The position numbers and the translations under genes were made by a program. Source: Candidatus Thalassarchaeum betae (lineage in GTDB: Archaea; Thermoplasmatota; Poseidoniia; Poseidoniales; Thalassarchaeaceae). From it: a stretch of 5,108 nucleotides of DNA. This document shows positions 1 to 2,315 of the stretch, one piece after another. The notes under the pieces were generated by a model. The model saw nothing but the letters and a program-made list of their open reading frames with translations, was not told the origin of the DNA and ran no database searches. Every line of letters starts with the position of its first letter. Position 1 is the stretch's first letter. The stretch spans positions 1-5,108 of the forward strand of contig PSPG01000020.1 in assembly GCA_003193925.1 (NCBI GenBank). The letters are read 5' to 3'.

Positions 1-629
1 GCAATGAAGAGTCCATTCCTTGGGATTCTGATGGGGATGGCTGCATCGATGATTCTGATGGGGATGGTGTCAAGGACAATGCAGATCTCTGCAGTGGATT
101 CGACGACAATGTTGACATTGATGGCGACTCGATTCCAGACGATTGCGACTCTCTGATAGATTCGGATGCGGATGGCGTGGCGGACTCCTCTGATGCATGC
201 CCGGGATATGACGACACTGTGGATGTTGATGCAGATGGGACTCCAGATGGTTGCGATTCTCTGATAGATTCGGATGCGGATGGCGTGGCGGACTCCTCTG
301 ATGCCTGCCCGGGATATGACGACACTGTGGATGTTGATGCAGATGGGACTCCAGATGGTTGCGATTCTCTGATAGATTCGGATGCGGATGGGATATCTGA
401 TGCCGACGACCAGTGTGCAGGATACAATGATTCACTCGACCAAGATGGCGATGGAATTCCTGACAATTGTGATCAGACACCGATGCCTGAAGATGACCAA
501 ACCAATGTTACCGATACAACTCCAGTAGATGATGAACAAGCATCCCTGGATTCGGGCTCATCCTCAGCATCACCGCAGCACTTGGAGCCACTCTTGTTGC
601 GACCCGCCGTGAGTGAATGGACCCATTGA
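1..629 (+). CDS. Secreted TSP3-repeat (Ca-binding) surface protein, 3' part, apparent C-terminal frameshift
   Basis: The gene enters from the left; codons are read from base 3 and the frame is open to the TGA at 627-629. The protein is dominated by Asp-rich DxDxDG loops with regularly spaced Cys (for example DSDADGVADSSDACPG and DVDADGTPDGCDS), the pattern of thrombospondin type-3 calcium-binding repeats. Four 36-residue units cover bases 45-476. A Thr/Asp/Glu-rich linker with an N-glycosylation sequon (NVT) follows. TSP3 arrays of this type occur in extracellular, surface-anchored proteins; the role is probably structural or adhesive, but the N-terminal domains that would define it lie outside the window. 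The encoded last 28 residues (SLDSGSSSASPQHLEPLL...) resemble no anchor. One frame over, the same DNA encodes a PGF-type sorting signal ending at the TGA at 614-616. I therefore infer that a one-base indel near 536-542 displaced the true C-terminus, so 616 is the more likely original gene end. Base use is more AT-rich than in the genes at 800-4980. Confidence 0.8.
   Translation, partial: NEESIPWDSDGDGCIDDSDGDGVKDNADLCSGFDDNVDIDGDSIPDDCDSLIDSDADGVADSSDACPGYDDTVDVDADGTPDGCDSLIDSDADGVADSSDACPGYDDTVDVDADGTPDGCDSLIDSDADGISDADDQCAGYNDSLDQDGDGIPDNCDQTPMPEDDQTNVTDTTPVDDEQASLDSGSSSASPQHLEPLLLRPAVSEWTH
45..476 (+). repeat. Four tandem 36-aa (108-bp) TSP3 repeat units
   Basis: Four codon-phased units of exactly 108 bp lie at 45-152, 153-260, 261-368 and 369-476. 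Each encodes two Asp loops and two Cys. The outer units are diverged (first: IDDSDGDGVKDNADLCSG...; last: LIDSDADGISDADDQCAG...). The two central units are identical in protein sequence (LIDSDADGVADSSDACPG...) and nearly identical in DNA. Confidence 0.9.
150..391 (+). repeat. Near-perfect 108-bp direct tandem duplication
   Basis: With a 108-base offset the sequence matches itself from 150 to 391 with only one visible mismatch (A197 versus C305). This makes two full copies (151-258 and 259-366) plus the first 25 bases of a third (367-391). It sits inside the TSP3 array and keeps frame. The near identity contrasts with the diverged flanking units and suggests a recent unit duplication or gene conversion, or an assembly effect. 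Confidence 0.88.
539..616 (+). other. Out-of-frame PGF-CTERM-like archaeosortase sorting signal
   Basis: Read from base 542 (frame 2), the DNA encodes IPGFGLILSITAALG followed by ATLVATRRE and a TGA at 614-616: a PGF tripeptide, about 18 hydrophobic residues, then RR at the extreme C-terminus. This tripartite layout is that of PGF-CTERM signals, which archaeosortase A removes while transferring the protein to a lipid anchor. The TSP3 gene uses frame 3, and frame 2 is closed by a TGA at 533-535, so the frame change must lie between about 536 and 542. Inserting one base there would give a smooth ...EQ-A-IPGFG... junction. No slippery heptamer is visible, so programmed frameshifting is not supported. 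A sequencing or assembly indel is the simplest explanation, with a genuine mutation as alternative. Confidence 0.7.
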
Positions 630-656
630 AACCCCACTGACTCGCCCGTGACTCAC

Positions 657-677
657 AGGGTGCATGAGTGCAACCCT
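657..677. terminator. Hairpin in convergent spacer (possible terminator)
   Basis: Bases 657-664 (AGGGTGCA) pair with 669-677 (TGCAACCCT) across a TGAG loop, giving eight base pairs with A672 bulged. It lies just past the TSP3 gene and between two converging genes, which suits a 3'-end structure. No T-run follows on either strand, and archaeal termination usually depends on T-rich tracts, so function is uncertain. Confidence 0.3.
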
Positions 678-699
678 ATGCAATAGGTAGTGTTTCATT

Positions 700-718
700 G
701 GGTTCTGCTGAGGAACCC
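700..718. terminator. Second hairpin in convergent spacer
   Basis: GGGTTC (700-705) pairs perfectly with GAACCC (713-718), extended by a T-G wobble (706-712) around the loop GCTGA. Being symmetrical it would form in transcripts from either side. It lies about midway between the ends of the TSP3 gene and the lipoprotein gene. No adjacent T-tract is present. Confidence 0.3.
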
Positions 719-797
719 TATGACTCGGATATGACTCATTCATACCGACTGACTGAGGGGCGACTCATTCGCTACCCTGTGATTCAGTGGTAAGCAA

Positions 798-2276
798 TCA
801 GTTGAATTCGGCCAGATCGCCGACTGATTCGTACAGGCTGGGCCCGCTGCCTAGGAAATAGACCGAGCCAATCCTGCTGCGCGAGTCCTCTGGCGTGGAG
901 TTGTTACCGGTAGCGCAGACCCCGGTACAGCCGTCTGCGAAGGCCACGTAAACGCGTCCCTCCCGGTCGATGTGGAGGTCGTTGAAGTCCAGCAGGTTAC
1001 GGTTAGAGCCCCCGATGTCGCGGCAGTCCCCGCTGTTCAGGCAGATGCTGCCGACCTGGACCGGGTCGGGGGACACCCTGACCGTGTGGAACACCGGGTT
1101 CGGGTCAAGCGCATTGAGGCTGTACGTGATGTACAGGTAGTAGCTGACGTTGGCGGGCGCGTAGTGCGGGTTGCCGTCCCACGGCTCGCCGTCGATGTCG
1201 GATTGGTTCAGCGCGCTGCCGTTCTCGCTCCCTAGGTACGTGATCGCAATCCGCCCCGGGTCGCCGGCATCGATGTGCGGGAAGGTGGTGGAGATCACCT
1301 CGATGGGGCTCAACCGGGTGCTGTTCTGCTCCCAGGTCTGCCCGGAGTTGGTGCTGCGGGACATGTATACCCCGTGGTCAGCACCGATCCAGATGTGGTA
1401 GGCGTTGGACTCGCTGTCTGTGGCGACCTCGGAGTTCTTCCGCGGGTTCGGCGTGCCGACGTCCTCTCCCATCGTACGCTCCTCCCAGGTCAGCCCGTTG
1501 TCCTTGGAGAAAACTATCGTCGGCGTCGCTACTCGCGGCGTCACGTAGACGGTTCCGTCGGGCGCTGTTGTGACGGCGCCGTGCAGCCCTCCGTTAGTGG
1601 TCACTAGACCGAAGACCAAGCCGCCAACCTCGAAGCTAGCTCCACCATCGAAGCTGGTGTAGCAGAATATGCCGACTCCCTTGTTGTAGCAGAAGTAGAC
1701 GGCGGTTTCGTAGATATCCTGAGAAAATTCTCCGATCAAGCCGTAACCATCGTCCGTCCAGGGTCCCGAGCCGAGCTTGATGTGGTCGTTGAGGGGAATC
1801 GGGCCGGAGTCGTGCGGGTTGCCCAGCCAGTTCACTCCGTCGTCATCGCTCCATGCGATCCAAGTGGTCATGAGGCCCACCATCTGGACGTCGAACACAC
1901 GGTCCGTCATGAGATCCACCCACAGCCATGGATCGCTCGTCGATTGATGCTGGAAGATCGAGTTCATGTGCTCCCACGTCTCGCCGTGATCGCACGAGCG
2001 CATGACCTTCTCGAAGGCGGTGAAGAACATGCAGCCGCTCGAGGTGATGCCGATGCTCGGTTCGGCCCCGTCTTCGCCCACGTCGCTGAAAACGAAACTT
2101 AGGGGCAGGGGTTGGTAGAGAGCCAATGAAAGGTTCAGGCCGTCCGGTCCGGTGATGAAAATCCCGTCCGGAAGTGAGGGTTCCTCTGGGGGTGGTGGTG
2201 GCGAATCCTCCTTGAAGCAGCCAGCAAGCGATGCCGACAGCATCAGGATCCCGATTAGCAAGACCTTCGCCCGCAT
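798..2276 (-). CDS. Secreted Asp-box (BNR/sialidase-like) beta-propeller lipoprotein
   Basis: The 492-residue protein begins MRAKVLLIGILMLSASLAGC, a short basic n-region, hydrophobic core and lipobox LAGC with the lipidated Cys at residue 20. An acidic/proline tether (KEDSPPPPPEEP) follows. At least five Asp-box motifs (S-x-D-x-G-x-T-W type) are visible: SCDHGETW (94-101), SDDDGVNW (143-150), SFDGGASF (208-215), SKDNGLTW (257-264) and STNSGQTW (308-315). Such motifs mark BNR beta-propellers, found in sialidases and in many non-enzymatic surface proteins. I see no clear sialidase catalytic arginine triad, so glycosidase activity is not claimed. A Cys-bearing C-terminal part (CLNSGDC, CTGVC) may form disulfides. 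I chose ATG 2276 because it opens directly into the signal peptide. A TTG at 2303 would add nine residues and has a weak AGGT upstream, so it stays possible. The gene lies 96 bases after pyrI on the same strand, so read-through is possible. Confidence 0.85.
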   Translation of the reverse strand: MRAKVLLIGILMLSASLAGCFKEDSPPPPPEEPSLPDGIFITGPDGLNLSLALYQPLPLSFVFSDVGEDGAEPSIGITSSGCMFFTAFEKVMRSCDHGETWEHMNSIFQHQSTSDPWLWVDLMTDRVFDVQMVGLMTTWIAWSDDDGVNWLGNPHDSGPIPLNDHIKLGSGPWTDDGYGLIGEFSQDIYETAVYFCYNKGVGIFCYTSFDGGASFEVGGLVFGLVTTNGGLHGAVTTAPDGTVYVTPRVATPTIVFSKDNGLTWEERTMGEDVGTPNPRKNSEVATDSESNAYHIWIGADHGVYMSRSTNSGQTWEQNSTRLSPIEVISTTFPHIDAGDPGRIAITYLGSENGSALNQSDIDGEPWDGNPHYAPANVSYYLYITYSLNALDPNPVFHTVRVSPDPVQVGSICLNSGDCRDIGGSNRNLLDFNDLHIDREGRVYVAFADGCTGVCATGNNSTPEDSRSRIGSVYFLGSGPSLYESVGDLAEFN

Positions 2277-2315
2277 ATCCGCATCGACAGCGCGGTAACG
2301 CAATTACCTTGTCCT

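What the first reader, a model, noticed from the sequence alone, without database searches (positions are those of the whole stretch)
533..629. Archaeosortase (PGF-CTERM) anchor displaced by a one-base frameshift
The annotated frame of the TSP3 protein ends in an unstructured Ser/His-rich tail. Frame 2 of the same DNA encodes a textbook tail: IPGF, a hydrophobic stretch, then RRE and a stop at 614-616. The TGA at 533-535 in frame 2 confines the shift to about 536-542. If real, the protein would lose its membrane/lipid anchor and be released; if a sequencing error, the gene should be corrected to end at 616. Either way the anchor reveals the protein's surface location and the sorting pathway of the host.
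Basis: partly seen in the sequence, partly recalled or inferred. Interest (0 to 1): 0.6.

Follow-up and report, generated by a model that had tools for sequence, protein, structure and literature searches.

The report
Surface-anchor signal knocked out of frame
In a marine archaeon a gene for a cell-surface enzyme still carries, in the wrong reading frame, the tail that should anchor the protein to the cell; a sister species has the same gene intact, so a seven-base deletion (or an assembly error of that size) has cut off the anchor.

Summary
Frame 2, 536-616, encodes TSIPGFGLILSITAALGATLVATRRE*, which passes the PGF-CTERM model TIGR04126 (28.3 bits genome-wide, 30.7 alone; cut-off 24.5). The genome has an archaeosortase A (TIGR04125, 86 bits, cut-off 75). 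Upstream codons are in frame 3. A same-genus genome (G010) carries the orthologous gene intact: a 674-aa arylsulfotransferase-like (ASST) protein with TSP3 repeats, in frame into the same tail (...TTPVDDGEATSIPGFG...RRE*). The window differs from it at the joint by one gap of 7 bases (GTGAAGC, between 534 and 535), net -1, not one base at 536-542. The sequence GATGATGGTGAAGCAACAAG also occurs in a PhoX-type gene of another Poseidoniales genome, so the 7-base form looks ancestral. Reads are not available, so real allele versus assembly error stays open; I lean to a real, very recent allele (about 0.6), because other window genes are intact and a 7-base gap without homopolymer is not a typical base-calling error. 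The wider result: the tail looks transplanted from PhoX-type genes, and close ASST orthologs carry different tail types, so anchors seem to be swapped in this order. Mechanism and families are known; interest is modest.

The parts
1..534 (+). 3' part of an ASST-TSP3 surface-protein gene in frame 3: TSP3 repeats, including near-identical 108-base tandem units at about 134-391, then the linker CDQTPMPEDDQTNVTDTTPVDD; the 5' part lies beyond the contig start
   Evidence: PF02412; tandem repeats; 90-92% DNA identity to the G010 ASST gene; PF05935 Arylsulfotrans on the G010 and G026 orthologs
534..535 (+). site of the frame break: GTGAAGC (7 bases) present here in G010 and in the G312 PhoX-type gene is missing
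   Evidence: pairwise and multiple alignments
536..616 (+). displaced PGF-CTERM anchor in frame 2 with stop: TSIPGFGLILSITAALGATLVATRRE*
   Evidence: TIGR04126 28.3/30.7 bits; PF18204 20.4 bits
537..629 (+). present frame-3 continuation QASLDSGSSSASPQHLEPLLLRPAVSEWTH* that replaces the anchor; no family match

Best explanation
The window holds the 3' end of a Poseidoniales (Marine Group II) gene for a secreted ASST-like enzyme with TSP3 repeats. In the common ancestor with G010 this gene was joined to a PGF-CTERM tail of the kind carried by PhoX-type genes, at a shared AGATGATG (inferred). The intact protein would be exported, its tail recognised and cleaved by archaeosortase A and the protein lipid-anchored (inferred from Haloferax). 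In the assembled allele 7 bases (GTGAAGC) are missing at 534/535, so translation stays in frame 3, reads 30 unrelated residues (537-626) and stops at 627-629 (shown from sequence). If the allele exists in cells, the protein would be exported but not sorted or anchored, hence released (inferred). I put about 0.6 on a real recent allele and 0.4 on an assembly or sequencing error; the anatomy is the same either way, and the confidence below is for the anatomy.
For: The tail passes TIGR04126 and PF18204. The genome has archaeosortase A, 86 bits over a cut-off of 75, and exo_archaeo TIGR04178 49 bits. G010 has the intact in-frame gene, 674 aa with an N-terminal hydrophobic segment, ASST domain, TSP3-like repeats and PGF-CTERM. 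GATGATGGTGAAGCAACAAG is identical in G010 and the G312 PhoX-type gene, so the 7 bases were probably present at the fusion. Tail differences between the window and two PhoX-type tails avoid second codon positions of frame 2 (2/0/5 and 3/0/6 by codon position), so frame 2 is the constrained frame. Upstream frame 3 is under constraint: 22 of 32 differences from G010 at third positions. By reading the aligned tails, the three window-G010 tail differences are all changes on the G010 side, so the window tail is undecayed. Window genes for PyrB, PyrI and a GHMP kinase are intact over nearly full model lengths, so indel errors are not pervasive.
Against: No reads. The break is 534 bases from a contig start beside near-identical 108-base repeats, where coverage and assembly are doubtful. 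A stretch of 91-96 bases ending at the break is 100% identical to genes of another genus (G026) and another family (G049), which invites tangled assembly. The tail shows no decay. Only one in-frame ortholog with this tail was found among 318 genomes of the order.
Confidence: 0.82

Rival explanations
1. Sequencing or assembly error: the cells carry the intact in-frame gene as in G010, and 7 bases were lost in assembly or gap filling near the contig edge.
For: Contig start within the gene, near-identical repeats, a 91-96 base block shared at 100% with other genomes and ending at the break, ASST part missing from the assembly, tail without decay.
Against: A 7-base loss with no homopolymer and no microhomology is unusual for base calling; switching between genomes inside the shared block would still need reads spanning the shifted joint; the other genes in the window are intact.
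Confidence: 0.4
2. One-base deletion: the fused tail had GATGATGCAACAAGC, as in some PhoX-type tails; the window lost the C, and G010 separately gained six bases.
For: The G049 PhoX-type gene reads GATGACGATGCAACAAGC, one base longer at the joint than the window.
Against: Needs two events, and the six bases in G010 would by chance recreate the sequence of the G312 PhoX-type gene.
Confidence: 0.12
3. Programmed -1 frameshifting makes both an anchored and a released form.
For: The shift needed is -1 and both frames are open across 536-613.
Against: No slippery heptamer at 525-545 (sequence read directly); the in-frame ortholog needs no recoding; the frame-2 TGA at 533-535 leaves almost no overlap.
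Confidence: 0.02

Closest known systems
PGF-CTERM (TIGR04126 / PF18204) sorted by archaeosortase A (TIGR04125), as in Haloferax volcanii ArtA
   Same: PGF motif, hydrophobic stretch, basic end, stop directly after; archaeosortase A in the same genome
   Different: Out of frame with the protein in this assembly; the carrier is an ASST-TSP3 protein of a marine Poseidoniales archaeon
ASST-like proteins with TSP3 repeats of Poseidoniales
   Same: G010 ortholog 90-92% DNA identity over the shared part; PF05935 in the orthologs
   Different: Most relatives read end in a plain transmembrane helix, often with a cytoplasmic LPxGWTMEQWxxYGQQ segment; only the window and G010 have this PhoX-type PGF tail, and G161 ends in a different, sub-threshold PGF tail
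PhoX-family (PF05787) proteins with PGF-CTERM in Poseidoniales (UWMA-0357; BLASTP relatives in G049, G032, G231)
   Same: Tail DNA 88-93% identical over 73-91 bases; the joint GATGATGGTGAAGCAACAAG identical in one copy (G312)
   Different: The protein in front of the tail is unrelated to ASST (no BLASTP match)

Membership tests
PGF-CTERM sorting domain (TIGR04126) | Score over the curated cut-off of 24.5 bits | tested here: met
   28.3 bits in the genome search, 30.7 for the isolated tail
PGF-CTERM sorting domain (TIGR04126) | PGF motif, hydrophobic segment, basic residues | tested here: met
   IPGF GLILSITAALGATLVAT RRE
PGF-CTERM sorting domain (TIGR04126) | At the C-terminus and in frame with the exported protein | tested here: not met
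   Out of frame in the window; in frame in the G010 ortholog. The assembled protein is therefore not a PGF-CTERM protein; its ortholog is
PGF-CTERM sorting domain (TIGR04126) | Archaeosortase A in the same genome | tested here: met
   G000:C19:20892-21704, 86.3 bits, cut-off 75
PGF-CTERM sorting domain (TIGR04126) | N-terminal export signal on the same protein | tested here: inconclusive
   The window lacks the 5' end; the G010 ortholog begins with a hydrophobic segment by eye; no signal-peptide predictor was run
PGF-CTERM sorting domain (TIGR04126) | Cleavage and lipid attachment by archaeosortase | not testable with these tools
   needs experiment
Arylsulfotransferase-like (PF05935) | ASST domain in the protein | tested here: inconclusive
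   Not in the window (contig start); present in the orthologs G010, G026, G161

The most novel reading that the evidence does not exclude
C-terminal anchor tails are exchanged as short DNA cassettes between unrelated surface-protein genes across genera and families of Poseidoniales, switching proteins between archaeosortase-lipid and transmembrane anchoring; the frameshifted window allele is a further step that releases the protein.
Probability: 0.45. Interest if true: 0.45.

Novelty: new member of a known kind. Interest (0 to 1): 0.3.

Why it matters
It identifies a surface enzyme of an uncultured marine archaeon and its sorting route, and warns that an automatic annotation would miss the anchor. 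The comparison suggests that the way a surface protein is anchored can change between close relatives by recombination at the 3' end of the gene. For archaeosortase sorting in Marine Group II I found no published account in the papers searched, which is a limited search.

Tried and rejected
Programmed frameshifting: no slippery site, and the ortholog is in frame. Phase variation by slippage: no tandem repeat or microhomology at the 7-base gap. Chance PGF-like tail: rejected by model score, ortholog and shuffles. Frame-3 tail as a real domain: no family match and not seen in relatives read. Other genomes of the same species: a pattern scan of genome contigs found only G010, G026, G049 and UWMA-0357, with a note that records near the window may be left out; viral contigs and phage records gave nothing. 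The missing 5' part of the gene was not found elsewhere in the assembly.

Full report
Setting. The window is the entire contig C17 (5108 bases) of a 1.48-Mb, 92% complete genome in 23 contigs. The order is therefore most likely Poseidoniales (Marine Group II); this is inference from those titles.

Check of the observation. Frame 3 runs from the contig start through TSP3 repeats and a linker to SLDSGSSSASPQHLEPLLLRPAVSEWTH* at 629. Frame 2 from 536 to 616 reads TSIPGFGLILSITAALGATLVATRRE*. It passes TIGR04126 and PF18204, and it is the only over-cut-off PGF-CTERM tail of this genome that sits on a frame of 26 codons. Shuffles gave no such tail in 400,000 trials. Archaeosortase A is encoded at C19:20892-21704.

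The intact ortholog. G010, of the same genus, has the gene in one frame: 674 aa, hydrophobic N-terminus, ASST domain (PF05935, 66 bits), TSP3-like repeats, linker, PGF-CTERM. Window and G010 are 90-92% identical in DNA over the shared part; the window has one more 108-base repeat unit. Of 32 differences upstream, 22 fall on third positions of frame 3, so frame 3 is coding up to 534. At 534/535 the window lacks GTGAAGC. The same GATGATGGTGAAGCAACAAG stands in a PhoX-type gene of G312, which makes the 7-base form the likely ancestral joint. A one-base loss remains possible only with a second, coincidental event in G010.

Where the tail came from. The tail DNA (window 537-617) is 88-93% identical to tails of other genes in G032, G028, G049 and UWMA-0357. 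A pattern of 26 bases from it (one mismatch allowed) occurs at 8 places in 7 of 318 genomes of the order, in 6 genera and both families, and never with the reversed control pattern. Five of the eight carriers are related to each other by BLASTP; the UWMA-0357 one is PhoX, PF05787, 105 bits. G010's ASST body does not match them. ASST linker and PhoX-type tail share AGATGATG at the joint. A crossover there would create the G010 gene; this is inferred.

Other tails of the same enzyme. ASST relatives were found in 94 of 318 genomes of the order. I read C-termini from 33 loci, some cut by the end of the fetched stretch. G026 and G140 (88% identical to G010 in the ASST domain) end in a plain transmembrane helix. 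G161 (92%) ends in another TSP3-like array and a PGF-like tail that scores 15.7 bits, under the cut-off. Many others end in a transmembrane helix with a cytoplasmic LPxGWTMEQWxxYGQQ segment. In UWMA-0357 a PhoX gene with PGF tail is followed, in frame after its TGA, by an orphan ASST-type linker and transmembrane tail, which looks like a scar of such an exchange. Contamination of MAGs could mimic part of this pattern and was not excluded.

Real or artefact. For artefact: contig edge, near-identical repeats, a block of 91-96 bases shared at 100% with other genomes and ending at the break, no decay in the tail. For a real allele: 7 bases without homopolymer or microhomology, other genes of the window intact, and the argument that switching between genomes in the shared block would still need reads with the shifted joint. 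I give 0.6 to a real allele. If real it must be recent.

Mechanism. In Haloferax, proteins with PGF motif, hydrophobic domain and positive residues are processed by ArtA and lipid-anchored (PMC7157517; PMC8559796). By analogy the intact protein is anchored and the shifted one released. None of this was tested in Poseidoniales. Thrombospondin genes are reported as widespread in Poseidoniales and linked to adhesion (PMC6461757).

Verdict. Observation right, mechanism class right, size and place of the shift corrected. A known sorting signal on a known kind of surface protein, with a probably recent loss of frame; the tail exchange is the more interesting lead.

Noticed in passing
window 618-787: Repeat of about 170 bases after the stop codon, with imperfect inverted arms (649-661 / 774-786); matched in 9 of 13 genomes of the genus, with a second 90% copy in this genome (C18:372-541) plus shorter matches, several within a few hundred bases of contig ends. 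Looks like a small mobile element; similarity to G010 stops at 648, at the edge of the inverted arm.
   Followed up: partly
L102, reverse strand about 6589-6900: In UWMA-0357 a PhoX gene with PGF-CTERM is followed, in the same frame after TGA, by an orphan ASST-type linker and transmembrane tail.
   Followed up: partly
window 444-534: 91 bases 100% identical to a gene of another family (G049) and to G026 of another genus; recent transfer, strong constraint or MAG contamination not separated.
   Followed up: partly
window 798-2303 (-) and L033: The BNR-repeat lipoprotein gene beside the TSP3 gene is also near a TSP3 linker and tail in G049 (73% DNA identity over 1.4 kb), about 2 kb apart there; in G010 the ASST gene has other neighbours.
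   Followed up: partly
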